From NCBI RefSeq assembly GCF_017163755.1, contig NZ_JAFIWC010000031.1, forward strand, positions 1 through 59,214: 59,214 bases of DNA. The letters run 5' to 3'. Shown piece by piece: positions 27,076 to 50,983 of the stretch. The translations under genes were made by a program, and so were the position numbers. Numbering within the stretch: position 1 is the stretch's first letter; each line of letters begins with the position of its first letter. The notes beneath the pieces were generated by a model, which saw only the letters and a program-made list of their open reading frames with translations, was not told the DNA's origin and made no database searches. This stretch comes from Xanthomonas sp. Lineage in GTDB: Bacteria > Pseudomonadota > Gammaproteobacteria > Xanthomonadales > Xanthomonadaceae.

Positions 27076-27178
27076 CGCCGGGCTCCGTGGCGCGCACGGC
27101 GCGCGCCGCGCGATGCATCGCGGCACGGTCCGGTGGCGATGCGCGGAGGCGGCAGGCCGGCCGCGTTCCCCGGCCCGC

Positions 27179-30064: not shown

Positions 30065-30117
30065 GTTCACTCCTTGGTATCGCGTGACGGCGCCACCTCG
30101 ATGGCGGCGCCGAGGTG

Positions 30118-31842: not shown

Positions 31843-31859
31843 GCGGGTAGGACTCCGTG

Positions 31860-33785: not shown

Positions 33786-33899
33786 TGCCTCGATCCTGTG
33801 GTGGTCGATCCGTCGATGTACGGCGCGGCGACGGCCGCATCCGGCAGGCGCTGGAACCGGCGCTTCGCCCGCCATACCGCCAGGCCCTGGCCGCACGGA

Positions 33900-36140: not shown

Positions 36141-36596
36141 GCTCAGCCCGCCGCGCATGGCACGGGCGCGCCGCGGCGCGCGCAACGGTGCACGTTCCGC
36201 GGCGGCGGAACATGGCGGTACTGCAACGACATGGATTCCCTCCCAGGACACATGTACTTGGGTCGCCGGACGCAGCGCCGCGGGGCCGGCAGCCGCCCCG
36301 CCGCCTCGGGCGCGGCGCGGCGCCGCGACAGCATCGGCGGCCGTGGCGCAGGCAAAGGCCGCAGCTTGCCGGCGCGGGTCGAGCATAGGCGCGGCAGCCG
36401 ATCGCGCGCAAACCGCCACGTCATGTCCGCGCATCCGTTGCGGCCGGCACGGGGCCGGCGCGGCGACACCTGCGCCGCCGGACACGTATCGCGCGCACGC
36501 CGGTGCCGCAACGCGGCTGCCGGAGCGCACCGGGGTACGCCGCCGGCGCGCACGCGGACACGCCCGGCGACGCCGCGGCGGCGGTCCGTCCCGCAC
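36141..36596. promoter_or_regulatory. GH74 leader region with receptor-like promoter
   Basis: 456 bp between the first receptor gene and GH74. It contains, leftward, a -10-like CCTATGCTCGACCC (complement of 36382-36389 and flank), which closely matches those of the two receptor promoters. About 150 bases of untranslated leader follow, then the conserved block ACATGTGTCCTGGGAGGGAA at ~36234-36253 and the leader peptide. No AATGAAA-type operator was found here. No terminator with a T-tract follows the receptor stop. Confidence 0.5.
36143..36232 (-). CDS. 29-residue leader peptide upstream of GH74
   Basis: ATG 36232 is preceded by CTGGGAGGGAA, a strong ribosome binding site identical to that of the receptor genes upstream. 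The frame encodes 29 residues, beginning [17 protein letters not shown], and ends in TGA two bases before the GH74 ATG. Its start resembles the N-termini of the neighbouring receptors (MSASHSHCPQQRTVAL, MASRHYRGPAIRAAG). It may be a receptor-gene remnant that now delivers ribosomes to GH74. Expression is not proven. Confidence 0.5.
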
Positions 36597-39347
36597 TCAG
36601 TAGCTGGCCCGCAAGCTGAAGCCATAGCGGCGGTCGTTGATCTGCCAGTCCTGCTGCCGCGAACGGAAGCCGGTATAGGTTTCGATCTTGGAATCGAGCA
36701 GGTTGCTGCCGTCCAGCGACACCGACCACACGTCGTTGATGTTGAAGCGCAGCGAGGCGTCCAGCTGGCCGTACTCGTCGTTGTACACCGGCAGGTTGCC
36801 GGTGCCGTTGCCGGCGGTGGTCACCAGCCATTCGCTGCGCCAGTTGTAGGCCACGCGCGCGGAGAAGCGCGCCTTCTCGTACATCAGGATCGCGTTGTAG
36901 CTGTTCTTGGACAGCCCTTCCAGCGGCACGATCAGCGCATTGCCGTTGGTGTCGGTCGCGCCCGGGCTGGGCGCCTCCGAATGCACGTAGGTGTAGTTGG
37001 TCTGGATGCCGAAGCCGCTCAACCAGCCGGGCAGGAAGTCGAAGAACTGGGTGTAGCCGACCTCCACGCCCTTGACCGTGCCCTGGTCGCCATTGACCGG
37101 GCGGGTGATCTGCCACACCTGGCCGTCGTAGACCTCGTTGAACACCGCATTGGCGATGAACCCCTTCACCTTCTTGTAGAACACGGTGCCGTACAGCGTC
37201 GAGCCCTGGCCGAAGTACCACTCCAGCGCGGTGTCGAACTGGTCGGCGGTCATCGGCTGCAGGTCCGGGTTGCCGGCGCCGCCGGTGCGCGTGGTGACGC
37301 CGCCGGCGTCGTTGGCGCTCAGGCTCAGATTGGGATTGAGCTTGTCGAAGGTCGGACGCGAGATGCCGCGCGAGGCGGCCACGCGCCATTGCAGGTTGTC
37401 GCGCAGGAACCAGCGCAGATTGAGGCTGGGCAGCACGTCGGTGTAGGTCTGCTGCGCGCTGACCGGCAGCAGGCCGCCACCCTCGGCATCGGTGGCGGTG
37501 CGCACGCCGGTCGAACTGACTTCGGTGCGCACGACGCGCAGGCCGATGTTGCCGTCGAACGGCACCTCGCCGTCGGTGCCGAAGCGCAGCACGCCGTAGG
37601 CGGCGTAGGTCTTCTCGCCCTGGGTGTTGATGTGGTTGGGGCCGAACTGCAGCGGCGTGGCGCCGAACGCGGCCAGGGTCTGCTCGTAGTTCTCCACCGC
37701 GGCGTCGGATGCGGTCAGGGTCGGCCCGAAGAAGTAGCCATCGCCGCGGAACGCGTCGGTCACCGGGTTCTGCACCAGCGCCACGCCGGGCATCTGCGCG
37801 AACGGCACGCCGGAGCAGTCCTGCGTGGTCGCCGGCAGGCACATGAAGCGCCAGACGTTGCCGCGGTTGGTCGCGTCGCGGTCGGTGTAGCGCACGCCGG
37901 CCTTGAAGCTGCGCGCGAAGCTGTCGTCGAACGCCAGGTCCATGTCGGCGCGCCAGGCGAACTCGGTCGCCTCGTTGTCGTCCTTGTTGTCCAGGTGCCA
38001 GCGCCAGCCGCCGTAGTTGGCCGGGTTGGCGGCGAAACCCTCCGCGCCGTTGGCGTCGGTGATCCACATCCGCGCCAGGTCGCCGCTCAGGTCCATGTTG
38101 AGGTACGGTGCCGGCGACGCGCTGCCGGTGTTGATGATGTAGCGCGTGGACTTGGTGGTGGCGTCGATGTACTGGAAGTCGGTGGACAGGGTCAGGCTCG
38201 GGTTGACCGCCCAGCGCGCGCCGCCGGAGTAGTCGCTGGTCACCGAGTGGCGCCGGGTCAGGCTGGTGTTCGATTCGATCGGCACGTCGCGGAACACGCC
38301 GCGCACCATCTCGCCGCGCTCGTTGAACTCGAAATCGCCGGCATCGATGCTCGGCGTGATCGGGTTGTTCCCGGTCAGCGAGAAGAACGAATAGTCGTGC
38401 CACTGGAAGCGGTAGTCCGAGCGCAGCCCCTGCAGGTAGACCTCCACGTCGTCGTTCGGGCGCCACTGCAGCGCGACGGAGCTGGTCTCGCGTTCGCGGT
38501 CGCCCAGCGTGCTGGTGATGCCGCCGCCATGCGGCACGTACACGTCCTCGCCCACATGGCCGGGAATGTCGTTCTGCAGCCACCAGGTGGAGATCGTGCC
38601 GACGTCGCGGCGGAAGCTGCCGTCCTGCTTGGACGCGTTGACCAGCACGCCGATCTCGCCGATCCCGGTCTGCCAGCGGTTGCTGAACAGCCCCGAGAAC
38701 GCGGTCTCGCCCTCGTCGGCCAGGTCGTAGTAGTTGTACTGCACGCCGCCGGCGAGCTTCATGCCGTCGAAGTCGAACGGCAGGCGCGTACGCAGGTCGA
38801 CGGTGCCGCCCAGGCCGCCTTCGATCATTTCCGCCGACGGGTTCTTGTAGACGTTGACCCCGGCCAGCAGCTCCGCCGACACGTCCTCGAAGCTCAGTCC
38901 GCGGCCGTCATTGGCGGTGAAGATGTCGCGGCCGTTGAGCTCGGTGCGCACCTGGGTCAGGCCGCGTATGGCGATGGTGCTGCCCTCGCCGTAGTTGCGC
39001 GCGATCTGGATGCCGGAGATGCGCTGCAGCGCCTCGGCGACGTTGTTGTCGGGCAGCTTGCCGATGTCCTCGGCGACGATCGAATCGACCACCTGGTCGG
39101 CGTTCTGCTTGATCGACTGCGCCTTGGTGACGCTGCTGCGGGTACCGGTGACCTGCACCGTGTCCAGCTGGGTGGTCGCCTCGGACGTCGCCGGCTCGGC
39201 GCCGGCCACGCGGCCGGTCGCGTCCTGGGCGTAGGCCTGCGTGCTCAGCAGCGCGGCGATGCTGGCGGCGATGAGCGAACGGCGCACATCGCGCGAACTG
39301 CGGTGGCCTGGTGCGAAAACGCGGGCATTGCGGTGGTGCGCTGACAT
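36597..39347 (-). CDS. TonB-dependent receptor (copy 1)
   Basis: 916-residue outer-membrane receptor. Signal peptide LIAASIAALLSTQAYAQ, then a TonB-box/plug start (QLDTVQVTGTRSSVTKAQ), a plug domain with EALQRISGIQIAR and a 22-strand barrel ending RYGFSLRASY with a terminal aromatic. ATG 39347 has GGAGAGAG upstream. It is very similar along its whole length to the next receptor, including GNIGLRVVRTEV and YTQFFDFLPGWLSGFG. Context says it imports xyloglucan oligosaccharides. It has a leader unlike the other two receptors and may be co-transcribed from the copy 2 promoter. Confidence 0.93.
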   Translation of the reverse strand: MSAHHRNARVFAPGHRSSRDVRRSLIAASIAALLSTQAYAQDATGRVAGAEPATSEATTQLDTVQVTGTRSSVTKAQSIKQNADQVVDSIVAEDIGKLPDNNVAEALQRISGIQIARNYGEGSTIAIRGLTQVRTELNGRDIFTANDGRGLSFEDVSAELLAGVNVYKNPSAEMIEGGLGGTVDLRTRLPFDFDGMKLAGGVQYNYYDLADEGETAFSGLFSNRWQTGIGEIGVLVNASKQDGSFRRDVGTISTWWLQNDIPGHVGEDVYVPHGGGITSTLGDRERETSSVALQWRPNDDVEVYLQGLRSDYRFQWHDYSFFSLTGNNPITPSIDAGDFEFNERGEMVRGVFRDVPIESNTSLTRRHSVTSDYSGGARWAVNPSLTLSTDFQYIDATTKSTRYIINTGSASPAPYLNMDLSGDLARMWITDANGAEGFAANPANYGGWRWHLDNKDDNEATEFAWRADMDLAFDDSFARSFKAGVRYTDRDATNRGNVWRFMCLPATTQDCSGVPFAQMPGVALVQNPVTDAFRGDGYFFGPTLTASDAAVENYEQTLAAFGATPLQFGPNHINTQGEKTYAAYGVLRFGTDGEVPFDGNIGLRVVRTEVSSTGVRTATDAEGGGLLPVSAQQTYTDVLPSLNLRWFLRDNLQWRVAASRGISRPTFDKLNPNLSLSANDAGGVTTRTGGAGNPDLQPMTADQFDTALEWYFGQGSTLYGTVFYKKVKGFIANAVFNEVYDGQVWQITRPVNGDQGTVKGVEVGYTQFFDFLPGWLSGFGIQTNYTYVHSEAPSPGATDTNGNALIVPLEGLSKNSYNAILMYEKARFSARVAYNWRSEWLVTTAGNGTGNLPVYNDEYGQLDASLRFNINDVWSVSLDGSNLLDSKIETYTGFRSRQQDWQINDRRYGFSLRASY

Positions 39348-39503
39348 GGTGCTCTCTCCAGTGCCATGTTCCGTTCGTTGGCAGGCAGCGTCGCTGAGGG
39401 GGACCTGCGGCCAGTGCCGCATCCGCGGCCGTCCAAGCAGCCGCCGGACCGGCGGCCGCTGGGCGGCACGTCGGACCGGCGTCGCACGCAGGGCGTGCGC
39501 GGG

Positions 39504-42230
39504 TTACAGGCTCGCGCGCAGGGTGATGCCGTAGCGGCGGTCGTTGATCACGAAGTCGCGCAAGCGCGATTCGTAGCCCAGGTAGCTCTCGTTGCGGGTG
39601 TCGAGCAGGTTCACCCCGTCCACCGAGACCGACCACACGTCGTTGATGTTGTAGCGCACCGACGCGTCCAGCTGGCCGAAGCCCTTGTTGTACACCGGCA
39701 GGTTGCCGGTGCCGTTGCCGGCGGTGGTCACCAGCCAGTCGCTGCGCCAGTTGTAGGCCGCACGCGCCGAGAAACGCGCCATCTCGTAGCTGAGGATCAC
39801 GTTGTAGCTGTTCTTGGACAGGCCCTGCAGCGGCACCGTCAGCGCCTGGCCGTTGGTGTCAGTGGCGGTCGGGCTCGGCGCCTCGCTGTCGACGTAGGTG
39901 TAGTTGGTCTGCAGGCCGAAGCCGCTCAGCCAGCCCGGCAGGAAGTCGAAGAACTGGGTGTAGCCCACTTCCACGCCGCGGACCTTGCCGTCCTTGCCGT
40001 TGACCGGGCGGGTGATCTCCCAGGTGTCGCCGCCGTAGACTTCCTCGAACACCGCATCGGCGATGAAGCCCTCGACCTTCTTGTAGAAGACCGTGCCGTA
40101 CATCATCGAGCCGGTGCCGAAATACCATTCCAGCGCGGTATCGAACTGGTCGGCCTTCATCGGCGCCAGATCCGGGTTGCCGGCCGAGCCGGTGCGGCGG
40201 GTGGTGCCGTCGCCGCCGTCGCTGGTGCCCAGGCTCAGGTTCGGGTTGAGCCGGTTCAGGTCCGGGCGCGAGATGCCGCGCGAGGCGGCGAAGCGCCACT
40301 GCAGGTTGTCGGTGAGCATCCAACGCAGGTTCAGGCTCGGCAGCACGTCGGTGTAGGTCTGCTGCACGTCCACCGGCAGCAGGCCGCCGCCCTCGGCGTC
40401 GGTACCGGTACGCACGCCCTGCGAATCGACCTTGGTGCGCACGATGCGGATGCCGATGTTGCCGTCGAACGGCACCGCGCCGTCGTCCACGCCGAAGCGC
40501 AGCACGCCGTAGGCGGCGTAGGTCTGCTCGCCCTGGGTGTTGATGTTGTTCGGGGCGAAGACCAGCGGCGAGGCGCCGAACATCGCCAGCGTCTGCTCGT
40601 AGTTGCCGACCAGCGCATCGGAGGCGGTCAGCGTGGGGCCGAACGCGCGCGAATCGCCGCGGAAGAAGTCGGTGATCGGGTTCTGCACCAGCTCCGCGTC
40701 CGGATACTGCGAGAACGGCGCGCCGATCGGCATCCAGCGCCACACGTTGCCCTTGTTCTCCGCGTCGCGGTCGGTGTAGCGCACGCCGGCCCTGAAGCTG
40801 CGCGCGAAGCTGTCGTCGAACGCCAGGTCCATGTCCGAGCGCCAGGCGAACTCGGTGGCCTCGTTGTCGTCCTGGTTGTCCAGGTGGAACTTCCAGCCGG
40901 TGTAGTTGGCCGGGTCGGTCAGGTAGCCCTGGTTGCCGCTGGCATCGGTCACCGACAGCCGCGGCAGGTCGCCGCTGAAGTCCACGTTGAAAAACGGCAC
41001 GCTGGTCATGCCGGTGCCGACGATGTAGCGCGTGCCCTTGGTGGTGGCGTCGATGTACTGGAAGTCGGTGCTCAGGGTCAGGTTCGGGGTCACCGTCCAC
41101 TTGGCGCCCAACGAATAGTCGGTGGTCACCGACTTGCGCCGGGTCAGGCTGGTGTTGGAGTCGGCCGGGGTGTTCTGGAAGGTGCCGCTGACGAACTCGT
41201 TGCGGTCGTTGACCACGATGTCGTCGTAGCCCTGCATCGGCGCCTGGCCGCTGTAGGCGAAGAACGAATAGTCGTGCCAGCTGAAGTCGTAGTCCGAACG
41301 CAGCACCTGCGCGGTGACCTCGACGTCGTCGTTCGGGCGCCACTGCAGCGCGAACGCGCCGGTCTTGCGCTTGCGCTCGCCGACGGTGGTGTTGATGCCG
41401 GCGCCGTGCGGCACCGAGATCGCCTGGCCCTGGTAGCCCGGCAGGTCGGTCTGGGTGTACCACGGCTCGACCGAGATCGTGTCCTGGCGGAACGGGCTGG
41501 TCTGCTGCGAATAGTTCACCAGCAGGCCGATCTCGCCGATGCCGGTCTGCCAGCGGTCGCTGAACATGCCCGAGAACGCCGGCTTGCCGTCGTCGGCCAG
41601 GTCGTAGTGGTTGTACTGCACGCTGCCGGCGATCTTGCGCCCGTCGTAGTCGAACGGCAGGCGCGTGCGCAGGTCGACGGTGCCGCCCAGGCCGCCTTCG
41701 ATCATGTCCGCCGACGGGTTCTTGTACACATTGACGCCGGCCAGCAGTTCCGCCGACACGTCCTCGAAGCTGAGCCCGCGGCCGTCGTTGGCGGTGAAGA
41801 TATCGCGGCCGTTGAGCTCGGTGCGCACCTGGGTCAGGCCGCGGATGGCGATGCTGCTGCCTTCGCCGTAGTTGCGCGCGATCTGGATGCCGGAGATGCG
41901 CTGCAGCGCCTCGGCGACGTTGTTGTCGGGCAGCTTGCCGATGTCCTCGGCAACGATGGAGTCGACGATCTGCTCGGAATTCTGCTTGACCAGCTGCGCC
42001 TTGGTGACGCTGCTGCGGGTACCGGTGACCTGCACCGTGTCCAGCTGCGTGGCCGGATCGGCCGTGGTCGAAGCGGGCTCGGCCTGCTGCGCCTGCGCGG
42101 CGGACGCGGCGACCAGGGCGGCAACGGCAAGGGCGATCGCGGAACGGCGCAGCGCGCGATCGGAAAGACCACGGGTAGAACGGAGCGCCACGGTCCGCTG
42201 TTGCGGACAATGGCTATGAGACGCTGACAT
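39504..42230 (-). CDS. TonB-dependent receptor (copy 2)
   Basis: 908-residue outer-membrane receptor, a close tandem paralogue of the copy 1 gene 156 bp downstream. Signal peptide IALAVAALVAASAAQAQ, plug start QLDTVQVTGTRSSVTKAQ, and barrel end RYGITLRASL. The two differ mainly in extracellular-loop regions, which would alter ligand choice. ATG 42230 is preceded by CTGGGAGGGAAGCACC. Its own promoter and a candidate operator are at 42378-42476. Confidence 0.93.
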   Translation of the reverse strand: MSASHSHCPQQRTVALRSTRGLSDRALRRSAIALAVAALVAASAAQAQQAEPASTTADPATQLDTVQVTGTRSSVTKAQLVKQNSEQIVDSIVAEDIGKLPDNNVAEALQRISGIQIARNYGEGSSIAIRGLTQVRTELNGRDIFTANDGRGLSFEDVSAELLAGVNVYKNPSADMIEGGLGGTVDLRTRLPFDYDGRKIAGSVQYNHYDLADDGKPAFSGMFSDRWQTGIGEIGLLVNYSQQTSPFRQDTISVEPWYTQTDLPGYQGQAISVPHGAGINTTVGERKRKTGAFALQWRPNDDVEVTAQVLRSDYDFSWHDYSFFAYSGQAPMQGYDDIVVNDRNEFVSGTFQNTPADSNTSLTRRKSVTTDYSLGAKWTVTPNLTLSTDFQYIDATTKGTRYIVGTGMTSVPFFNVDFSGDLPRLSVTDASGNQGYLTDPANYTGWKFHLDNQDDNEATEFAWRSDMDLAFDDSFARSFRAGVRYTDRDAENKGNVWRWMPIGAPFSQYPDAELVQNPITDFFRGDSRAFGPTLTASDALVGNYEQTLAMFGASPLVFAPNNINTQGEQTYAAYGVLRFGVDDGAVPFDGNIGIRIVRTKVDSQGVRTGTDAEGGGLLPVDVQQTYTDVLPSLNLRWMLTDNLQWRFAASRGISRPDLNRLNPNLSLGTSDGGDGTTRRTGSAGNPDLAPMKADQFDTALEWYFGTGSMMYGTVFYKKVEGFIADAVFEEVYGGDTWEITRPVNGKDGKVRGVEVGYTQFFDFLPGWLSGFGLQTNYTYVDSEAPSPTATDTNGQALTVPLQGLSKNSYNVILSYEMARFSARAAYNWRSDWLVTTAGNGTGNLPVYNKGFGQLDASVRYNINDVWSVSVDGVNLLDTRNESYLGYESRLRDFVINDRRYGITLRASL

Positions 42231-42377
42231 GGTGCTTCCCTCCCAGGACACATGTACCAACGGTTCGACGATCGCGCCGGGATGGCAGGCGTCGCCGTTT
42301 CTAGTTGTCCGGCCACGCCTGCTGATGCGGCGTGTTGCCGTAAGCCGCACGGGCGTTGCGGGATGCAGCGCACATAT

Positions 42378-42394
42378 GGACCGGAAACCGGTCC
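42378..42394. promoter_or_regulatory. GGACCGG inverted repeat downstream of the receptor 2 -10
   Basis: Perfect 7-bp arms GGACCGG/CCGGTCC with a 3-base AAA/TTT centre, 13 bases downstream of the -10-like element. Placed where a repressor operator or an early transcript hairpin would act. Confidence 0.45.
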
Positions 42395-42434
42395 AGGCTC
42401 GATCGAAGCATAGGGCGCGCATACATGCCCCACC

Positions 42435-42449
42435 AATGAAAAATTCACG
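42435..42449. promoter_or_regulatory. AATGAAAWWTTCACG operator candidate (receptor 2)
   Basis: AATGAAAAATTCACG, 21 bp upstream of the -10-like element. It matches AATGAAATTTTCACG at 45866-45880 in 13 of 15 positions, at nearly the same distance from the promoter. The core TGAA-N3-TTCA is palindromic. Confidence 0.55.
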
Positions 42450-42701
42450 CGCAGCTATTGCGATTTCATATATGAAGCAGCTGTCCGCCAGCGATAACGC
42501 TTACATGGCGGCAGCGATTCTGGCGATCCGGCGCCCGCGACCACCCTGCCGCCCTGTCCCGACATCCGCGGCCAGCCGCCGTACCGGCCCGAGGCGTTCC
42601 CCTGGCAGCGGACCGCATCGCCTGCGGGGCGGTCTCGGCTTTCGGTGCGGCGCGGCTCCAATGCGGCAGCGCCGACGGCCCCCAGCGCCCGCCTGCAGCC
42701 G

Positions 42702-42733
42702 AAAAAAAAGCCCGCATGCAGCCGCATGCGGGC
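42702..42733 (-). terminator. Intrinsic terminator of receptor copy 3
   Basis: Leftward: GCCCGCATGC-loop-GCATGCGGGC (10-bp perfect stem, 4-base loop) followed by eight T. It lies 28 bp after the stop codon of receptor 3 and separates it from receptor 2. Confidence 0.92.
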
Positions 42734-42761
42734 GGAGGAAGCGCGAATTTCCCGCGCGCCG

Positions 42762-45683
42762 CTACCAGTTGGCGCGCAGCACCAGCGAATAGCGGCGGTC
42801 GTTGACGAACCAGCTGCGCGTATACAGGCGGTTGTCGATCTCGCCGTCGGCGTAGGACGTCGGCCCCATCAGCACCTTGGTCACCGTGTTGGTCAGGTTG
42901 TTGGCCTGGATGCCCAGCTGCAGGTGCGGGGTGAAGCGGTAGAAGGCCGAGGCGTCGAGCTGGCCGTAGTCGTCCGCCCAGGTCGGCAGCTTGGTCGCCA
43001 CGTCGCTGGCGGTCAGCAGGTAGCGCGAACGCCAGTTGTAGGCCAGGCGCACCGACAGCGGCCCCTTCTCGTAGATGCCGGCCAGGTTGTAGCTGCGCCG
43101 CGACAGCCCTTCCAGCGGCAGCGCGACCCCGGTGACGGTGGTCTGGGTATACGGGTCGGTGGCGCTGTTGACCCCGCCGCTGCTGTCGACGAAGGTGAAG
43201 TTGGCATTGACGCCGAAGCCGCTCATCCAGCCCGGCAGCGAGTCGAAGAACTGGGTGTAGCCGTACTCGAAGCCGCGGATGCGGCCCTTGGCCATGTTGT
43301 ACGGGCGCGTCACCAGCCAGTCCTGGCCGCCGTAGGTTTCGGTGACGGTCTGGGTGGAGAAGTAGTCCTTGACGCTCTTGTAGAACACGGTCAGGTACAT
43401 CATGTCGCTGGTGTCGAAATACCACTCCAGCGCGGTGTCGTACTGGTTGGCCTTCATCGGCTTGAGGTTGGGATTGCCGGCGGTGCCGGTCCACTGCGAC
43501 ACGCTGCCGTCGTCCTCGGTCTCCGCGGCCAGCAGCAGGTACGGCTGCAGCTGGGTGTAGTCCGGGCGCGCCATCGCCTTGGACGCGGCGATGCGCCACT
43601 GCAACGCATCGGAGAACCTGAAGCGCACGTTGAGGCTGGGCAGCACGTCGGTGTAGCGGCCCTGCGCGTTGTTCTCGAAGTACTGGCCGGTGTATTGCGC
43701 CTTGAGCGCATCCGGCGCCGAAGTGTCCGACAGGTCCGGGAACTGGCCGTAGCCGGCCGCCTCGGTCCTGGTCTGCACCACGCGCACGCCGAGGTTGCCG
43801 TCCACCGGCACCCCCAGCGCCTCGTCGTTGCCGAAATACAGCACCGCATAGGCCGCCTGGGTGCGCTCGAACTGGCGGTTGGTGTCCTGCAGCTGGTACT
43901 GGTCCGGCGCCCAGCCCCAGCCGCGCAACGCCACCACCTGCTCGATCAGCGCCGAGGTGCCGGCATAGTCCTTGACCGCGCCGTTGCTGGGGAAGTACAG
44001 GCTGTTGGGCACGCTGACCTTGCCGCGGAACAGGTTCGAATACGAATACAGCGACGAGGACGCGGTCATGTAGCTGGCCAGATCCGCCAGGCCGGTGCTG
44101 TTGCCGGGAATCATCGCCCAGTTGTCGCTGATCACGCCCCAGTTGTAGCCGGAGTTCTTGTTGGTCTGGGTGCGGTCGGTGGCGCGGATGCCGGCGCGGA
44201 AGCTGCGCAGCCATGGGCTGTCGTCGTAGGTGTATTCCAGGTCGAAGCGCGTGGCCAGTTCGCGGCCGCGGTTCTTCGCCAGGTGGTCCATCGCCGCGCT
44301 CCAAAAATAGTTGGAGGGCTCGGCGGTATAACGGCCGTCGGCGATCGCCACCGACGGGTACTTGCCGCCCAGGTCCACGCTCAGCCCGGGCAGGTAGACC
44401 GAACTGAACAAGGTGAAGTCCAGCGAGTCGCTCTCCGAGCGCACCAGCTGCATGTCGCCGCGCAGGGTCAGGTTGCCGGTCAGCCGGTGGCTGAAACCGC
44501 CGGCCAGGTCGGAGGTTGTGGTGCTCTGCTGCGCGTAGCGGTTGTCGGTGTTGAAGCGCACCCCGTCGGTGGTCAGGTTGCCGCGCCAGGAACTGGACAC
44601 CGGCGATCCGCCGACGAAGCGGCCCTGGTCGTCGTATTCGAAACCGGTGCCCGGGGCCGGCAGGATCGTATTGGTGTCGTCGTTGAAGAACGCCGCGCGC
44701 TCCTGCCAGTTCATGTCGTACGTCGAGCGCAGGTACTGCACGTAGATCTCGGTGTCGTCGCTGGGCCGCCACTGGAACGCCCCGGCCACGCCGCGTCGCT
44801 TGCGCTCGAAGTCCAGCTGGCGCCAGTTGACCCCGCCGGGCACGTAGACCTGGTCGAAGTCGGTGCCGGCGAGCAGCGCCGGGTCGTTGCGGCGCACGAA
44901 CGGCTCGACCTGGATGCCGTCGCTGCGCGTGGCCAGCTCCGAATACGCCACGTCGAACATGAAGCCCATCTCGCCCATGCCGGTGTCCCAGCGGTCGCTG
45001 AACAGGAACGAGCCGGACGGCTTGTAGCGCTTGCTGAAATCGCCGTAGTTGACGTCGGCGGTGAAGCCCATGATCCGGCCGGGCTGGTCGAACGGCATGC
45101 GCGTGCGCAGGTTGACCGTGCCGCCCAGGCCGCCTTCGATGATCTCCGCCGACGGGTTCTTGTACACGTCCACGCCCGCCATCAGCTCGGCCGGCACGTC
45201 CTCGAAGCTGAGCCCGCGGCCGCTGGCGGCGCTGAAGATGTCGCGGCCGTTGAGTTCGCCGCGCACCTGGGTCATGCCGCGGATCATCACCCCGCTGCCT
45301 TCGGCGGAGAAATGGTCCGGATCGCTGCGCGCCATGAAGTGGTCGATGGTCACGCCGCTGACCCGCTGCAGGGTCTCGGTGACGCTGCGGTCGGGCAGCG
45401 CGCCGATGTCCTCGGCGCTGACCGAGTCGATGATCTGCTCGGCGTCGCGCTTGATCGTCTGCGACTTGATCAGGCTGGCGCGCACGCCGGTGACCTCGAC
45501 CGCGTCCAGCTGGGTGATCGGGTCGCCGCTGCGGCGTGTCGCCGCCTCGTCGGCCTGCTGCGCCATCGCCTGGGTGCTGAGCAGCAGGCCGATGCCCAGG
45601 GCCATCGCGGAACGACGCAAATCGCAGGTGGAACGCGGGCCTGCGGCCCGGATGGCCGGACCACGGTAGTGACGCGATGCCAT
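42762..45683 (-). CDS. TonB-dependent receptor (copy 3, divergent)
   Basis: 973-residue outer-membrane receptor. Signal peptide LGIGLLLSTQAMAQ, plug start QLDAVEVTGVRASLIKSQ, and barrel ending RYSLVLRANW. It shares the family layout with copies 1 and 2 but is clearly more distant, with a longer plug loop (DHFMARSDPDHFSAEGSG). ATG 45683 is preceded by CTGGGAGGGAAGCATC. It is a single-gene unit, with its own promoter region (45684-46070) and its own terminator. The substrate is unknown; position suggests a xyloglucan- or galactoside-derived ligand. Confidence 0.92.
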   Translation of the reverse strand: MASRHYRGPAIRAAGPRSTCDLRRSAMALGIGLLLSTQAMAQQADEAATRRSGDPITQLDAVEVTGVRASLIKSQTIKRDAEQIIDSVSAEDIGALPDRSVTETLQRVSGVTIDHFMARSDPDHFSAEGSGVMIRGMTQVRGELNGRDIFSAASGRGLSFEDVPAELMAGVDVYKNPSAEIIEGGLGGTVNLRTRMPFDQPGRIMGFTADVNYGDFSKRYKPSGSFLFSDRWDTGMGEMGFMFDVAYSELATRSDGIQVEPFVRRNDPALLAGTDFDQVYVPGGVNWRQLDFERKRRGVAGAFQWRPSDDTEIYVQYLRSTYDMNWQERAAFFNDDTNTILPAPGTGFEYDDQGRFVGGSPVSSSWRGNLTTDGVRFNTDNRYAQQSTTTSDLAGGFSHRLTGNLTLRGDMQLVRSESDSLDFTLFSSVYLPGLSVDLGGKYPSVAIADGRYTAEPSNYFWSAAMDHLAKNRGRELATRFDLEYTYDDSPWLRSFRAGIRATDRTQTNKNSGYNWGVISDNWAMIPGNSTGLADLASYMTASSSLYSYSNLFRGKVSVPNSLYFPSNGAVKDYAGTSALIEQVVALRGWGWAPDQYQLQDTNRQFERTQAAYAVLYFGNDEALGVPVDGNLGVRVVQTRTEAAGYGQFPDLSDTSAPDALKAQYTGQYFENNAQGRYTDVLPSLNVRFRFSDALQWRIAASKAMARPDYTQLQPYLLLAAETEDDGSVSQWTGTAGNPNLKPMKANQYDTALEWYFDTSDMMYLTVFYKSVKDYFSTQTVTETYGGQDWLVTRPYNMAKGRIRGFEYGYTQFFDSLPGWMSGFGVNANFTFVDSSGGVNSATDPYTQTTVTGVALPLEGLSRRSYNLAGIYEKGPLSVRLAYNWRSRYLLTASDVATKLPTWADDYGQLDASAFYRFTPHLQLGIQANNLTNTVTKVLMGPTSYADGEIDNRLYTRSWFVNDRRYSLVLRANW

Positions 45684-45865
45684 GATGCTTCCCTCCCAGG
45701 AGACATGCATACACACGGGCGACGGTCGCGCGCTAACGCGCCGTCCTGCTGGTCATGGCCGGGCTCGCGGCCCGTGCCGTATCGCAGGTCGGGCCGGGAC
45801 GCGGTGCGCGGACCCGTGCCAAACGTCACGATGGACCGAGCCTAGGTCTGGGTTCACGCAATTCA

Positions 45866-45880
45866 AATGAAATTTTCACG
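45866..45880. promoter_or_regulatory. AATGAAAWWTTCACG operator candidate (receptor 3)
   Basis: AATGAAATTTTCACG with the palindromic core TGAAA-T-TTTCA, 20 bp upstream of the -10-like element of receptor 3. The 14-mer CAAATGAAATTTTC (45864-45877) recurs exactly between lysR and dgoA at 47149-47162 (opposite strand). Confidence 0.6.
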
Positions 45881-45883
45881 TCT

Positions 45884-45911
45884 ATCGATACATGTTTTTA
45901 CATGTATCGAT
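45884..45911. promoter_or_regulatory. Large inverted repeat ATCGATACATG-N6-CATGTATCGAT
   Basis: Perfect 11-bp arms with a 6-base TTTTTA centre, in AT-rich DNA immediately upstream of the operator candidate of receptor 3. It is strongly symmetric and unrelated to the REP elements. It looks like a dimeric regulator site; which regulator binds is unknown. Confidence 0.55.
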
Positions 45912-46128
45912 TTAAGTCGAGAATAGCGGCTCGATCGCCACAGATGACCACCCGTTAAAAGTAGTTGCCGCCTGGAGAACAGTTACGGGTGCAAGGACCC
46001 AGGGTTTTCGCGTCGCAAATGCTGCATGACGGCACGATGACAGCGGCTGCGACACATATATATATGTAGGAGGCAGTTCACCGCCACGCCGAGCCAGGCG
46101 CGCCTGCGCATGGCCCGGGCGCGCCGGC

Positions 46129-47088
46129 TCAGTCCGTCGTGCGGTCCGGATACAGGCGCTTGGCGGCGCTGCGCAGCGCGAGCAGGATGCGCTCGGCGCC
46201 CGGCGGCAGCAGGTAGTCGCGGCGCCGGATGATGCCGAACGATTCCATCCGCACCCCCAGCGCTATCGGCAGCACCGTCAGCAGCTTGGCCTGCACGTAG
46301 GGCGCCACCGCGTCGGCCGGCAGCGCCGCCAGCAGGTCGCTGCCGCGCAGCAGGCTGGTCATCACCGGCAACGACGAGGTTTCGATCACGTTCTGCGGCG
46401 TGGGCACGCCGTGTTCGAGGAACATCGCGTCCAGCCGCGCGCGCAGCACGCTATCCACCGGCGGCAGCACCCAGCCATAGCGCGCCAGGTCGGCATGGCG
46501 CAGGTCGCCGCGCGCGGACAGCGGGTGCCCGGCGCGCGCCACCGCCGAATGCGGCTCGTCGGCCAGCGGCTCGAACTCCAGCTCGTCGCCGCCGTGCGGG
46601 CCGAGGATGCGGCCGATCACGATGTCCAGCTGCCCGTCCAGCAGCTTGGCCACCAGCGGCCGGCTGTAGTCCATCTCCACCCGCACCAGGATCCCGGGAA
46701 ACTCGCGCTTGACCTCGGCGATCGCCTGCGGCACCAGGTTGGTGCCCGGGTTGACCACGGTGCCGATCGACACCTGGCCCATGCGGCCCTCGCACAGCGC
46801 GGCGATCTCCTCCTGCGCCCGGCTGATCTCCGACATCGCCGCGCGCGCGCGACGGATCAGCACCTGGCCGTACCAGGTCGGTTCCACGCCGCGCGCATGG
46901 CGCTCGAACAGCTTGACCCCGAGCAGGTCCTCCATCTCCGCCAGCAGCTTCGACGCGGCCGGCTGGGTCATGCTCGCCGCCTCGGCCGCGCGCAGCACCG
47001 AGCGATGCTCGTGCAGTTGCAGCAGCAGCAGCAGGTGTCGGGTCTTCAAGCGCGAGGCATTGAACCAAGGGTTGGCGGAAGCGGTCAT
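46129..47088 (-). CDS. LysR-type regulator, GbpR-like
   Basis: 319-residue LysR-family activator. The N-terminal winged HTH has ASRLKTRHLLLLLQLHEHRSVLRAAEAASMTQPAAS (split motif; key SVLRAAEAASMTQPAASKL). The substrate-binding domain follows (VSIGTVVNPGTNLVPQAIAEV; LDIVIGRILGP). The N-terminal pattern matches the GbpR subgroup, which senses sugars such as galactose or fucose. ATG 47088 is chosen from family length; an ATG at 47178 would add 30 residues. It is divergent from dgoA, which it probably controls, and upstream of receptor 3. Confidence 0.88.
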   Translation of the reverse strand: MTASANPWFNASRLKTRHLLLLLQLHEHRSVLRAAEAASMTQPAASKLLAEMEDLLGVKLFERHARGVEPTWYGQVLIRRARAAMSEISRAQEEIAALCEGRMGQVSIGTVVNPGTNLVPQAIAEVKREFPGILVRVEMDYSRPLVAKLLDGQLDIVIGRILGPHGGDELEFEPLADEPHSAVARAGHPLSARGDLRHADLARYGWVLPPVDSVLRARLDAMFLEHGVPTPQNVIETSSLPVMTSLLRGSDLLAALPADAVAPYVQAKLLTVLPIALGVRMESFGIIRRRDYLLPPGAERILLALRSAAKRLYPDRTTD

Positions 47089-47423
47089 TACAGAGCGGGA
47101 TCCTGAAGTAACGGGGAGTGCGTATTCACCAACGGAATAGGATATGTCGAAAATTTCATTTGCCGTGCATACCTTCACACGCGCACCCTATCGGCCAACC
47201 GCGGCTAGCGCCGCGCCCCGCCCCAACGCCAGACCCGCCTCGTGGACGCGCGGACGCTTCGCCTGCGCACATGATAAGGACGATCAGCCAGGAGGAAGGC
47301 CGATGGCAACCGATAGTTCGTCGCGAGCGGGGTTCCTCTCCCGGGCGCGAGCGCGCTTGCGGCCATGCCGCGCATGCCCCGCCTGCGCTCCCTACCGCGC
47401 CACGCACCCCATCAGGTAAGCCG
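47089..47423. promoter_or_regulatory. lysR-dgoA divergent control region
   Basis: 335 bp. GAAAATTTCATTTG at 47149-47162 is the exact complement of the receptor 3 operator segment and lies 61 bp upstream of the LysR start. That position allows autoregulation and control of dgoA. The dgoA-proximal 200 bp are GC-rich with no clear elements. Confidence 0.5.
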
Positions 47424-48044
47424 ATGCCCGCCGCCTCACCCTTCCAGTTCCCGTTGATCGCGATCCTGCGCGGCATCACCCCGGCCGACGCGCTGGACCA
47501 TGTCGGCGCGCTGGCCGAGGCAGGATACGACGCGATCGAGATCCCGTTGAATTCGCCCGACTGGGCCGACAGCATCGGCCAGGCCGCGCAGGCCTTCGCG
47601 CAGACCTGCTGGATCGGCGGCGGCACGGTGCTGCGCGTGGCCGACGTCGACGCCCTGGCCGACCTGGGCGCACGCTTCATCGTCACCCCCAACACGCGCC
47701 CGCCGGTGATCCGCCATGCGGTCGCGCGCGGCCTGCAGGTGGTGGCCGGCTTCGCCACCGCCAGCGAGGCCTTCGACGCGCTGGACGCCGGCGCGCAGAT
47801 GCTCAAGCTGTTCCCCGCCGCCACCTATGGCCCGGGCCACCTGCGCGCGCTGCGCGCGGTGCTGCCGGGCACGGTGCCGCTGTTCGTGGTCGGCGGCGTC
47901 AGCCCCGCCACGCTGCCGGACTACCTGAGCGCCGGCGCGATCGGCGCCGGCATCGGCGGCGAACTGTACAAACCCGGCCAGTCGCTCGCCCAGACCCGGG
48001 CGCAGGCGGCGGCCTTCCGGCAAGCCTATCTGGACCACGCATGA
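47424..48044 (+). CDS. dgoA: 2-dehydro-3-deoxy-6-phosphogalactonate aldolase
   Basis: 206-residue class I aldolase splitting KDPGal to pyruvate and glyceraldehyde-3-phosphate. It follows the E. coli DgoA pattern closely: [60 protein letters not shown] with the Schiff-base lysine, and [22 protein letters not shown] 47424 has AGGTAA upstream. Its stop overlaps dgoD (ATGA). First gene of a four-gene galactonate operon. Confidence 0.93.
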
Positions 48045-49192
48045 AGATCGTCCGCCTCACCACCTACCACGCCGCGCCGCGCTGGCTGTTCCTGAAGATC
48101 GAGACCGACGAGGGCATCACCGGCTGGGGCGAGCCGGTCATCGAGGGCCGCGCGCGCAGCGTCGACGCGGCCGTGCACGAACTGAGCGGCTACCTGATCG
48201 GCAAGGACCCGGCGCGGATCAACGACCTGTGGCAGCTGCTGTACCGCAGCGGCTTCTACCGCGGCGGGCCGATCCTGATGAGCGCCATCGCCGGCATCGA
48301 CCAGGCGCTGTGGGACATCAAGGGCAAGACCCTGGGCGTGCCGGTCTACGAACTGCTCGGCGGGCTGGTGCGCGACCGCATGAAGACCTATCGCTGGGTC
48401 GGCGGCGACCGCCCGGCCGACATCATCGCGCACATCGAAAGCTATCGTGCGCTGGGTTTCGACACCTTCAAGTTCAACGGCACCGAGGAGATGAAGCTGG
48501 TCGACGGCCCACGCGCGGTGGATGCGGCGGTGGCCAAGGTCGCGCAGATCCGCGAGGCGTTCGGCAACGCGATCGATTTCGGCGTCGACTTCCACGGCCG
48601 CGTCGGCGCGCCGATGGCGCGGGTGCTGCTGCGCGAGCTGGAGCCGTTCAAGCCGCTGTTCGTCGAGGAACCGGTATTGCCGGAACTGGCCGAGTACTAC
48701 CCGCGGCTGGCCGCGTCCACGCCGATTCCGCTGGCGGCCGGCGAACGCATGTATTCGCGCTTCGACTTCAAGTCGGTGCTGCAGGCCGGCGGCCTGTCGC
48801 TGCTGCAGCCGGACCTGTCGCATGCCGGCGGCATCACCGAATGCCTGAAGATCGCCAGCATGGCCGACGCCTACGACGTCGGCCTGGCCCCGCATTGCCC
48901 GCTCGGCCCGGTCGCGCTGGCGGCCTGCCTGCAGGTCGATTTCGTCTCGCACAACGCGGTGCTGCAGGAACAGAGCATCGGCATCCACTACAACGAAGGC
49001 GCCGACCTGCTCGACTACGTGTTGAACAAGGAAGACTTCGCCTGCGACGATGACGGCTGCATCGCCGCGTTGCCCAAGCCGGGCCTCGGCGTGGAAATCG
49101 ACGAGGAACGCCTGCGCCATGCCCACGAGAATCCCCCCGACTGGCACAACCCGGTCTGGCGCCACGCCGACGGCAGCATCGCCGAATGGTGA
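48041..49192 (+). CDS. dgoD: D-galactonate dehydratase
   Basis: 383-residue enolase-superfamily enzyme dehydrating D-galactonate to 2-keto-3-deoxygalactonate. Metal and catalytic residues are in [10 protein letters not shown] (Asp and His), [23 protein letters not shown] and [17 protein letters not shown]. Length and sequence match E. coli DgoD. It overlaps dgoA by four bases. Confidence 0.96.
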
Positions 49193-49196
49193 GCCG

Positions 49197-50102
49197 TTGA
49201 ACCCGCGGCACACCGCCGCGCTGGCGGTGGACAGCCGCTGCGCGCACGGCGAAGGCGTGCTGTGGTGCGAGCGCCGGCAGGCATTGTTCTGGGTCGACAT
49301 CAGCGGCCGCCAGCTGTGGCGCCACGACCCGGCCGGCGCCACCACCCGCCGCTGGGACCTGCCCGACCGCCCCGGCTGCCTGGGCCTGTTCGACGACGGC
49401 CGCCTGCTGCTGGCGCTGGCCAAGGGCCTGTACGCCGCCGATCCCGACGCCGCCGACGGCGCCGCGCTGGCGCTGCACAAGCTGGCCGACGTCGAGCCCG
49501 AACGCGACGACACCCGCAGCAACGACGGCCGCGCCGACCGCCACGGCAACTTCGTGTTCGGCACCATGAGCGAACGCGACGACCAGGCCCCGGTCGGCAG
49601 CTTCTACCAGTGGTCGGCGCGGCATGGCCTGCGCCGCCTGCCGCTGCCGGGCGTGGCCATCCCCAACGCGATCTGCTTCAGCGCCGATGGCCGCACCCTG
49701 TACTACTGCGACTCGGTGCGCCCGCAGATCCTGTGCTGCGACTACGACGCCGATGCCGCGCAGACCGCCAACAGCCGCGTGTTCGTCGAGCTCGACCGCA
49801 CCGATGCCGAGCCCGACGGCGCCATCGTCGATGCCGAAGGCCACCTGTGGAACGCGCAGTGGCGCGCCTGGCGGGTGGTGCGCTATCGCCCCGACGGCAG
49901 CGTCGAGCGCATCGTCGCGCTGCCGGTGAAGCATCCCACCTGCCCCGCGCTGGGCGGCGCCAACGCCGACACGCTGTACCTGAGCACGTCGCGGCTGGAC
50001 CACGAGGACGCCGAACTGCAGCGCACGCCGCAGGCCGGCGGCGTATTCGCCGCCGCGGTCGGCATCGCCGGCCTGCCCGAAGGACGCATCGCAAACGCAT
50101 GA
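49197..50102 (+). CDS. SMP-30/gluconolactonase family lactonase (galactonolactonase)
   Basis: 301-residue six-bladed propeller lactonase. Metal ligands and catalytic residues: CAHGEGVLW (Glu), RSNDGRADRHGNFVFGTM (Asn/Asp), IPNAICFSADG and AEPDGAIVDAEGHLWNA (catalytic Asp). TTG 49197 is inferred from the start of the conserved sequence right after the dgoD stop; GGTGA sits just upstream. The stop overlaps dgoK. In this operon it should open galactonolactone to galactonate. Confidence 0.85.
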   Translation: MNPRHTAALAVDSRCAHGEGVLWCERRQALFWVDISGRQLWRHDPAGATTRRWDLPDRPGCLGLFDDGRLLLALAKGLYAADPDAADGAALALHKLADVEPERDDTRSNDGRADRHGNFVFGTMSERDDQAPVGSFYQWSARHGLRRLPLPGVAIPNAICFSADGRTLYYCDSVRPQILCCDYDADAAQTANSRVFVELDRTDAEPDGAIVDAEGHLWNAQWRAWRVVRYRPDGSVERIVALPVKHPTCPALGGANADTLYLSTSRLDHEDAELQRTPQAGGVFAAAVGIAGLPEGRIANA

Positions 50103-50983
50103 TCGCCATCGACTGGGGTACCAGCAGCCTGCGCGGCTATCGGCTCGGCGCCGATGGCGCGGTCCTGGAGCAGCGCCGCAGCGACCAGGGCATCGGCGCG
50201 TGCGGCGGCCGGTTCGCCGACACCCTGGCGGCGCTGGTCGACGGCTGGGCCGGCGACCTCGTGCTGTGCGGGATGATCGGCAGCCGCAACGGCTGGATCG
50301 AACTGGGCTACGCGCCCTGCCCGGCCGACGCCGCCGCGCTGGCCGCGGCGATGCGGCCGCTGCAGGATCCCGCGCTGCCCGGGCGCACGCTGTGGTTCGT
50401 GCCGGGCGTGTCCAGCGGCGCCGACACGGTGCCGGACGTGATGCGCGGCGAGGAAACCCAGCTGATCGGCCTGCTCGACCGCCTGCCCCACGGCCGCCAC
50501 CAGGTGTGCCTGCCAGGCACGCACAGCAAGTGGGTGGAGCTGCGCGACGGCCGCATCGTCGCCCTGGCCACCGCGATGACCGGCGAGCTGTACGCGGTGC
50601 TGCGCCAGCACAGCCTGCTGGGCCGGCTGATGAGCGGCGACGACGCGCACTTCGACACGCCCGCCTTCGATGCCGGGCTGCAGCGCAGCGGCGAACCCGG
50701 CGGCCTGCTGCACCACCTGTTCGGCGTGCGCAGCCTGGGCCTGTTCGATCGCCTGCACGGCGCCGCCGCGCCGTCGTACCTGTCCGGCCTGCTGATCGGG
50801 CACGAACTGCGCGCACGCCTGCCGTTGGAGGCGCCGGTGCACCTGATCGGCGGCCACGGCCTGCTGAGCCGCTACGCGCATGCGCTGCGGGCGCTGGGCA
50901 TCGACTCGCAGGCGCATCCGGAGGACCTGGCCGCGCGTGGCCTGTACCGGCTGGCGCAACGGCGCGGCGGCATCGGCGACTGA
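50099..50983 (+). CDS. dgoK: 2-dehydro-3-deoxygalactonokinase
   Basis: 294-residue kinase making KDPGal for DgoA. It starts MIAIDWGTSSLRGYRL (phosphate-binding motif). Family signatures are VLCGMIGSRNGWIE, PGVSSGADTVPDVMRGEETQL, VCLPGTHSKWVEL and a C-terminal VHLIGGHGLLSRYAHAL. ATG 50099 overlaps the lactonase stop (ATGA). It completes a galactonate-to-central-metabolism route; no galactose dehydrogenase is in the window. Confidence 0.94.
   Translation: MIAIDWGTSSLRGYRLGADGAVLEQRRSDQGIGACGGRFADTLAALVDGWAGDLVLCGMIGSRNGWIELGYAPCPADAAALAAAMRPLQDPALPGRTLWFVPGVSSGADTVPDVMRGEETQLIGLLDRLPHGRHQVCLPGTHSKWVELRDGRIVALATAMTGELYAVLRQHSLLGRLMSGDDAHFDTPAFDAGLQRSGEPGGLLHHLFGVRSLGLFDRLHGAAAPSYLSGLLIGHELRARLPLEAPVHLIGGHGLLSRYAHALRALGIDSQAHPEDLAARGLYRLAQRRGGIGD

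What the first reader, a model, noticed from the sequence alone, without database searches (positions are those of the whole stretch)
42435..47162. One candidate operator shared by two receptor genes and the lysR-dgo region
AATGAAAAATTCACG (42435-42449) and AATGAAATTTTCACG (45866-45880) lie 20-21 bp upstream of matching -10-like elements of receptors 2 and 3. The 14-mer CAAATGAAATTTTC of the receptor 3 site recurs exactly between lysR and dgoA (47149-47162, other strand). In ~70% GC DNA an exact AT-rich 14-mer at a third control region is unlikely to be chance. It suggests the GbpR-like LysR protein governs uptake and galactonate genes together.
Basis: partly seen in the sequence, partly recalled or inferred. 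Interest (0 to 1): 0.75.

Follow-up and report, generated by a model that had tools for sequence, protein, structure and literature searches.

The report
Shared GamR switch for xyloglucan import
A short DNA switch, very probably bound by a galactose-sensing regulator, sits in front of both the galactonate-breakdown genes and the genes that import plant xyloglucan fragments, and it recurs across related bacterial genera.

Summary
In the 5.07 Mb genome the pattern CAAATGAAAWWTTC with at most one mismatch occurs exactly three times, at the finding's three places. The 14-mer is the promoter-proximal half of a larger element, TATTC-N7-GAATA-N9-GAAWWTTTCATTKG: a LysR-type T-N11-A dyad with a second site two helical turns downstream, in sense with the target gene. 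A site of at least 11 of 14 lies upstream of lysR, toward dgo, in 70 of 70 loci examined, and before TonB-dependent receptor genes in 98 of 106 regions. In a 109-genome family sample all 19 genomes with the regulator gene have a site, against 2 of 90 without. By position the LysR protein is the galactose regulator GamR (XAC1767). The receptor 2 site heads the xyloglucan-utilization gene cluster. In two relatives further copies precede hemicellulase, fucosidase and symporter genes. Best explanation: galactose released from xyloglucan activates GamR, which switches on import, depolymerization and galactonate catabolism together. Binding is untested. GamR and the xyloglucan locus are known; my searches listed no held paper linking them through this operator, but the primary GamR paper was not available.

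The parts
47122..47162 (+). Composite operator of the dgo operon: dyad TATTC-N7-GAATA (47123-47139, T-N11-A) and downstream half GAAAATTTCATTTG (47149-47162)
   Evidence: 30.5 bits, E 1.9e-6; a site of at least 11 of 14 in 70 of 70 lysR upstream regions examined, window included
42433..42473 (-). Composite operator of receptor 2 and the genes behind it: TATAT-N7-CAATA (42472-42456) and GAATTTTTCATTGG (42446-42433)
   Evidence: 26.7 bits, E 3.1e-5; same spacing as the dgo site
45864..45892 (-). Operator of receptor 3: intact GAAAATTTCATTTG (45877-45864), dyad half degraded or shifted by a neighbouring inverted repeat
   Evidence: 17.1 bits, E 0.03, only model positions 13-41 match
42407..42413 (-). 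-10-like element CTATGCT of receptor 2
   Evidence: sequence; similar elements at about the same distance in many relatives
45839..45845 (-). -10-like element CTAGGCT of receptor 3
   Evidence: sequence
46129..47088 (-). lysR gene, GamR-type (319 aa: HTH_1 + LysR_substrate)
   Evidence: relatives 70-96% identical in 70 named loci
47424..48044 (+). dgoA, 2-dehydro-3-deoxy-6-phosphogalactonate aldolase (start inferred; ORF opens at 47118)
   Evidence: NF006600 above cut-off
48041..49192 (+). dgoD, galactonate dehydratase
   Evidence: NF010624 above cut-off
49050..50102 (+). SMP-30/gluconolactonase-type lactonase (ORF extent; true start probably downstream of 49050)
50111..50950 (+). dgoK, 2-dehydro-3-deoxygalactonokinase (extent of the domain match)
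   Evidence: PF05035 over cut-off, the only match in the genome
42762..45683 (-). Receptor 3 (TonB-dependent, TIGR01782); start inferred at 45683 behind GGGAGGGAAGC
39504..42230 (-). Receptor 2 (TonB-dependent, TIGR01782); start inferred at 42230, not 42422, which lies upstream of the -10-like element
36597..39347 (-). Receptor 1 (TonB-dependent), tandem relative of receptor 2, no operator of its own; start inferred
   Evidence: (best score 10 of 14)
33900..36596 (-). GH74-like endo-xyloglucanase (BNR/sortilin repeats); family name by position and recall, not by a GH74 model
31860..33896 (-). SASA esterase with BetaGal_ABD2 (CE20-like; family name recalled)
30118..31860 (-). GH35 beta-galactosidase-like
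27179..30217 (-). GH31 (alpha-xylosidase-like)
24703..27282 (-). GH95 (alpha-fucosidase-like)
23213..24706 (-). FGGY carbohydrate kinase (xylulokinase-like)
42710..42733 (-). Terminator-like hairpin followed by T8, between receptor 3 and the receptor 2 operator
   Evidence: 10 terminator-like sites in the region against 8.7 in shuffles, so consensus alone is weak; this one has the longest stem and T run

Best explanation
The three sites are operators of one regulon, bound by the LysR-family protein encoded at 46129-47088, the counterpart of Xanthomonas GamR. A tetramer is inferred to sit on the T-N11-A dyad (TATTC-N7-GAATA, centred about -64 at receptor 2) and on the second site GAAWWTTTCATTKG about 22 bp downstream (about -46 to -33). 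When a galactose-derived inducer is present it would recruit RNA polymerase. The targets are the dgoA-dgoD-lactonase-dgoK operon, receptor 3, and receptor 2 with the co-directional genes behind it (receptor 1, GH74-like, CE20-like, GH35, GH31, GH95, kinase), that is, the xyloglucan-utilization locus. Galactose cut from xyloglucan side chains would thus switch on import and processing of more xyloglucan fragments together with galactonate catabolism, a feed-forward loop. The divergent lysR gene is presumably autoregulated. Shown by sequence: the element, its spacing, orientation, conservation, rarity and co-occurrence with the regulator gene. Inferred: binding, the inducer, activation, transcription starts and operon read-through.
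For: Exactly three genomic sites. A site of at least 11 of 14 in 70 of 70 lysR upstream regions (69 relatives plus the window; dgoA or dgoD seen beside it in 68), with GAATA in 69 and TATTC in 63. In receptor promoters, where the site was chosen only on the 14-bp half, 98 of 106 regions score >=11 (96 of 103 without the window), in 65 of the 67 loci that have such a region. Of these 98, 80 have TAT and 90 have ATA at the predicted dyad positions, against 0-3 at each of seven shifted offsets; >=13 of 14 was reached by 80 of 106 real regions and by 0 of 2120 resampled ones, >=11 by 98 of 106 and 115 of 2120. Dyad-to-14-mer spacing is identical at dgo and receptor sites, and orientation is the same relative to each target. 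In a family sample of 109 genomes the LysR gene is in 19 and sites are in 21, including all 19; Fisher p about 3e-19, ignoring shared ancestry. Unlinked sites found by the profile fall before a TonB receptor in other Xanthomonas genomes and, in G065 and G012, before GH39, GH5, GH29, Na+:solute symporter and GH43 genes. Published: the X. citri locus XAC1768-XAC1777 is induced by xyloglucan oligosaccharides, and XAC1767 is called GamR there (PMC8245568, passages and sections 6, 8, 11).
Against: No binding or expression data. The receptor 3 site of this window lacks a good dyad half (17.1 bits, model positions 13-41 only). Eight of 106 receptor regions score below 11: receptor 1 of the window, both receptors of L088 and of L100, and the second receptor of L081, L083 and L089. 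Scores of 11-12 are also reached by 115 of 2120 resampled regions, so the 18 weakest of the 98 are not individually secure. A looser 16-mer pattern with one mismatch matches in 66 of 297 family genomes (the reversed control matches in 10), and most of those places were not assigned to genes. Receptor 1 has no site. The -10 of dgo is uncertain: CTAT lies 25 nt beyond the 14-mer, against 18-19 at the receptors. Two genomes have sites without a detected gamR (G080, weak and partial; G092, fragmented assembly). GamR is reported to bind the hrpG/hrpX region, which I did not examine.
Confidence: 0.86

Rival explanations
1. The element is bound by a different, unlinked regulator that controls the same sugar genes, and the LysR protein acts only at its own divergent promoter or elsewhere.
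For: No binding data; one recurring distal site lies just behind a different LysR gene.
Against: T-N11-A dyad and two-turn second site typical of LysR proteins (recalled); the dyad is kept best in the divergent lysR-dgo promoter; co-occurrence with this lysR gene, 19 of 19 against 2 of 90.
Confidence: 0.08
2. The AT-rich 14-mer is an UP element or another core-promoter part that raises basal transcription, not an operator.
For: It lies at about -46 to -33 by the -10-like element and is AT-rich.
Against: Fixed sequence including CATTKG, a coupled dyad at fixed spacing (77 of 98), only three copies in a 5 Mb genome, and no profile match at E<=0.005 in 88 of 90 genomes without the lysR gene.
Confidence: 0.03
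3. The three copies are a chance or duplication remnant: promoter DNA was copied along with receptor genes and keeps no function.
For: Receptors 1-3 are paralogues and all three sites are in one cluster.
Against: Conservation in loci of Xanthomonas, Stenotrophomonas, Luteimonas, Pseudoxanthomonas and Lysobacter while flanks vary; sites before unrelated enzyme genes; the dgo promoter is not a receptor promoter.
Confidence: 0.02

Closest known systems
GamR, LysR-type galactose metabolism regulator of Xanthomonas (XAC1767 in X. citri; Rashid et al. 2016, paper not held)
   Same: LysR gene directly beside galactose/galactonate genes and the xyloglucan-locus receptors; neighbour order fits XAC1767-XAC1769.
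   Different: Known GamR targets, from passages of citing papers and the recalled abstract, are the adjacent galactose genes and hrpG/hrpX. Control of xyloglucan receptors and the composite operator described here are not in the passages I could read.
Xyloglucan utilization locus XyGUL of Xanthomonas (XAC1768-XAC1774; PMC8245568)
   Same: TonB receptors with GH74, esterase, GH35, GH31, GH95, then a sugar kinase and an MFS transporter; the published locus is induced by xyloglucan oligosaccharides.
   Different: Here three receptors instead of two lie before the GH74-like gene; the sections I read (6, 8, 11 and passages) name no regulator for the locus.
Classical LysR-type RBS/ABS promoters (T-N11-A; recalled)
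   Same: Dyad centred about -64 and a second site two turns downstream, divergent regulator gene.
   Different: At the receptors the second site is better conserved than the dyad, and it is not itself a T-N11-A palindrome.

Membership tests
LysR-type transcriptional regulator | N-terminal HTH_1 and C-terminal LysR substrate-binding domain | tested here: met
   PF00126 and PF03466 above cut-offs
LysR-type operator | T-N11-A interrupted dyad in the divergent promoter | tested here: met
   TATTC-N7-GAATA at 47123-47139; GAATA in 69 and TATTC in 63 of 70 loci
LysR-type operator | Protein binds and protects the site | not testable with these tools
   needs gel shift or footprint
GamR | Position beside galactose/galactonate genes and xyloglucan receptors, as XAC1767 | tested here: met
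   synteny in the loci against XAC1767-XAC1770 as described in PMC8245568
GamR | Direct sequence comparison with XAC1767 or XOO_2767 (the latter tag recalled) | not tested
   no sequence labelled with these tags was compared; relatives in 70 named loci are 70-96% identical
GamR | Galactose-dependent activation of the galactose genes | not testable with these tools
   reported for X. oryzae (recalled abstract; paper not held)
GamR | Binding at hrpG/hrpX | not tested
   intergenic region not located here; the own genome has only the three sites
Xanthomonas XyGUL | TonB receptors with GH74, GH31, GH35, GH95 and an esterase, next to xylose genes and MFS transporter | tested here: met
   the GH74 assignment rests on BNR/sortilin repeats and position, the CE20 name on recall; kinase and MFS transporter found, xylose isomerase not identified (the one ORF tried there gave no family)

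The most novel reading that the evidence does not exclude
GamR is a family-wide master activator of galactose-bearing hemicellulose use, not just of galactose breakdown. One composite operator, spread in trans to receptors, GH5, GH29, GH39 and GH43 enzymes and a Na+ symporter in different genera, makes released galactose the signal that turns on the whole xyloglucan import and degradation programme. In hrp-bearing xanthomonads the same protein would couple cell-wall breakdown directly to the reported hrp induction.
Probability: 0.5. Interest if true: 0.65.

Novelty: new member of a known kind. Interest (0 to 1): 0.5.

Why it matters
The xyloglucan locus of Xanthomonas is known to be induced by xyloglucan fragments, and galactose is known to raise hrpX expression; the sections I read name no regulator for the locus itself. 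A defined operator points to GamR as that regulator, gives a testable circuit from wall-derived galactose to import and catabolism, and allows regulon prediction across the Lysobacteraceae, as begun here for unlinked receptors, glycosidases and a symporter.

Tried and rejected
Chance was rejected: three genomic hits with 0 in the reversed control, and no resampled region reached the score of 80 of 106 real ones. UP element and duplication remnant were considered and rejected (see rivals). The 14-mer alone as the operator was rejected in favour of the composite.

The ORF start of receptor 2 at 42422 was rejected: it lies upstream of the -10-like element, a GGGAGGGAAGC leader precedes 42230, and many relatives align only from residue 41-62 on, though others align from earlier. 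The stock sigma-70 scan was uninformative (1 match against 1.5 expected). The inverted repeat at 45885-45910 was checked as a repeat family: its core occurs once in this genome and in 0 of the 19 other genus genomes searched. Reading the primary GamR paper failed because it is not held. Literature searches listed no held paper that by title, start of abstract or the passages I opened describes a GamR operator at xyloglucan receptors; most listed papers were not opened. The hrpG/hrpX region was not examined, for want of a query of known identity.

Caveats on counts: the 71 loci are the 70 plus the window. L068 was left out of the 70 lysR-upstream counts because its contig ends at lysR; in L066 and L094 no dgoA or dgoD was seen. 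The per-column table used 67 of 70 loci anchored on the motif, so its core columns are conserved partly by construction; searches give counts without that anchor. The 106 receptor regions are those with tblastn hits starting within the first 120 residues; L051, L067, L085 and L086 have none. R1 was built from 42 of the sites, the window's three included. The family comparison ignores relatedness; one search scored 58 candidates per genome with strict filters and at most 20, so absences are as seen at that depth. Seven of the 10 distal genus sites were fetched; only two of their downstream genes were profiled (L139, L143). Their scores are weak in part (18.7 to 13.5 bits, E 0.01 to 0.54). Three weak genus hits (G153:835663, G170:1615493, G111:3483001), the site of G028 and G093 and some others, and G080's were not assigned to a gene.

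Full report
Observation. The sequences and coordinates in the finding are right. In the window's own genome (5,069,976 bases, 75 contigs) the pattern CAAATGAAAWWTTC with up to one mismatch has three matches, all within this 4.7 kb, and its reversed control none. All three copies read GAAWWTTTCATTKG in the direction of the gene they precede: receptors 2 and 3 on the minus strand, dgo on the plus strand.

Surroundings. The window comes from a Xanthomonas, probably near X. bonasiae (LysR 96% identical). Rightward from the divergent promoter run a 2-dehydro-3-deoxy-6-phosphogalactonate aldolase, galactonate dehydratase, an SMP-30 lactonase and 2-dehydro-3-deoxygalactonokinase, that is, the lower galactose oxidation (De Ley-Doudoroff) pathway. 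Leftward lie lysR, receptor 3, a terminator-like hairpin with T8, then receptor 2, receptor 1, a GH74-like protein, a SASA esterase, GH35, GH31, GH95 and an FGGY kinase, with an MFS sugar transporter further on. This is the layout of the published Xanthomonas xyloglucan utilization locus, XAC1768-XAC1774 with xylose genes and MFS transporter beside it (PMC8245568, section 6). That paper calls XAC1767 GamR, which matches the lysR gene here by position. Real starts of the receptors, from the shared GGGAGGGAAGC leader, are about 42230 and 45683, leaving long 5' leaders behind the -10-like elements.

The element is larger than the 14-mer. In 70 named lysR loci of several Lysobacteraceae genera plus the window, the region upstream of lysR keeps one block. 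Read toward dgo, it is TATTC-N7-GAATA, then 9 bp, then GAAAATTTCATTTG. TATTC-N7-GAATA contains the T-N11-A of LysR-type sites; its centre is about 22 bp from the centre of GAAAATTTC. Of 70 regions examined (69 relatives and the window; L068 left out, contig end), all 70 have a site of at least 11 of 14; GAATA is in 69 and TATTC in 63. dgoA or dgoD was seen beside lysR in 68 of them.

Receptor promoters. Of 106 receptor regions in these loci (three of them the window's), 98 have a site of at least 11 of 14 in the 850 bp searched (700 bp upstream of the aligned start and 150 bp into the gene) and 80 have at least 13. In 2120 Markov-resampled regions none reached 13, 16 reached 12 and 99 reached 11. 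By locus, 65 of 67 with a receptor region have at least one such site. The site was chosen on the 14 bp alone, yet the dyad half-sites sit at the expected places: TAT in 80 of 98, ATA in 90 of 98, both in 77 of 98, against 0-3 at each of the seven shifted offsets tested. The spacing equals that at dgo. The eight regions below 11 are receptor 1 of the window, both receptors of L088 and L100, and the second receptor of L081, L083 and L089. The element persists where the receptors are only about 41% identical to receptor 3.

Genome-wide and family-wide. A sequence-only profile of 42 sites (R1) finds in the own genome the same three sites and no other at E<=10, with 150 of 224 candidates scored. 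In the genus 20 of 20 genomes have at least one match at E<=5. A further recurring site in 10 of 19 other genus genomes (18.7 to 13.5 bits) lies away from the cluster; seven were fetched, with closely similar site sequences. In the two whose downstream gene was profiled it is a TonB-dependent receptor. The receptor of L143 has no close counterpart in the own genome (best 32%). In a family sample of 109 genomes the lysR gene (E<=1e-85) is in 19 and sites (E<=0.005) are in 21; all 19 are among the 21 (Fisher p about 3e-19, relatedness ignored). The two exceptions are G080 (partial, weak) and G092 (fragmented assembly). Unlinked sites in G065 and G012 precede a GH39, a GH5 with ricin-type lectin domains, a GH29 alpha-L-fucosidase, a Na+:solute symporter and a GH43; the three of G012 match only model positions 8-41 (E about 0.001). 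In G092 a site precedes a SASA esterase. These are functions expected for hemicellulose use, and none of these sites was in the profile. A looser search for one 16-mer form of the proximal half, with one mismatch, gave matches in 66 of 297 family genomes, with 10 genomes matching the reversed control; most of those places were not assigned, so the half alone is less specific than the composite.

Mechanism. Placing -10 at TATGCT, the dyad centre at receptor 2 is near -64 and the second site spans about -46 to -33, the usual place of LysR recognition and activation sites (recalled). I infer a GamR tetramer on both sites, activated by galactose or a product of it, recruiting polymerase; the divergent lysR gene may be autoregulated. 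Because the glycosidase genes follow receptors 2 and 1 closely on the same strand (about 156 nt between receptor 2 and the inferred start of receptor 1, then hardly any gap down to the kinase), the receptor 2 operator probably commands the whole locus, while receptor 3 and dgo have their own. The published data fit: xyloglucan oligosaccharides induce XAC1768-XAC1777, the two receptors are needed for good growth on these oligosaccharides with XAC1769 the more important, and galactose alone raises hrpX. GamR is reported to bind the hrpG/hrpX region (review passage); I did not test that region.

Against. Nothing here shows binding. The window's receptor 3 site has lost a good dyad: a perfect inverted repeat (within 45885-45910), whose core is single in this genome and absent from the 19 other genus genomes searched, stands where the dyad lies in relatives. 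That promoter may have been rewired in this strain. The -10 of dgo is uncertain.

Known and new. The regulator type, GamR itself and the xyloglucan locus are known. The composite operator, its presence at the xyloglucan receptors and its spread to unlinked receptors, glycosidases and a symporter did not appear in my literature searches (listings, plus passages of five papers and three sections of PMC8245568), but the primary GamR paper is not held, so a published binding site at the galactose genes cannot be excluded. I rate it a new member of a known kind, interest 0.5.

Noticed in passing
45885-45910: Perfect inverted repeat ATCGATACATGT/ACATGTATCGAT with a short loop directly upstream of the receptor 3 site, where relatives carry the LysR dyad; its core is single in the genome and absent from 19 other genus genomes. 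Possibly an operator of another regulator.
   Followed up: partly
L139:3971-4009, L143:4003-4041 and 8 further genus genomes: A fourth composite site, away from the xyloglucan locus, before a TonB-dependent receptor gene (profiled in two genomes) and just behind a different LysR gene; the L143 receptor has no close counterpart in the window's genome.
   Followed up: partly
L177-L181 (genomes G065, G012): Unlinked composite or partial sites before GH39, GH5+ricin-lectin, GH29, Na+:solute symporter and GH43 genes, suggesting a wider hemicellulose regulon in relatives.
   Followed up: partly
36597-42422: Receptors 1 and 2 look like tandem relatives (one relative's receptor is 82% and 72% identical to receptors 2 and 1); the X. 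citri locus has two receptors in all, this window three. Receptor 1 has no operator of its own.
   Followed up: no
42230-42253 and 45683-45706: Receptors 2 and 3 share an almost identical leader, with TCCTGGGAGGGAAGC just before their inferred start codons.
   Followed up: no
L184:3843 (G092): A site of the receptor 2 kind stands in front of a SASA esterase gene; in the 9 kb read, receptor 2 and GH74 are not at that place, so the operator seems kept though the first genes are gone.
   Followed up: no
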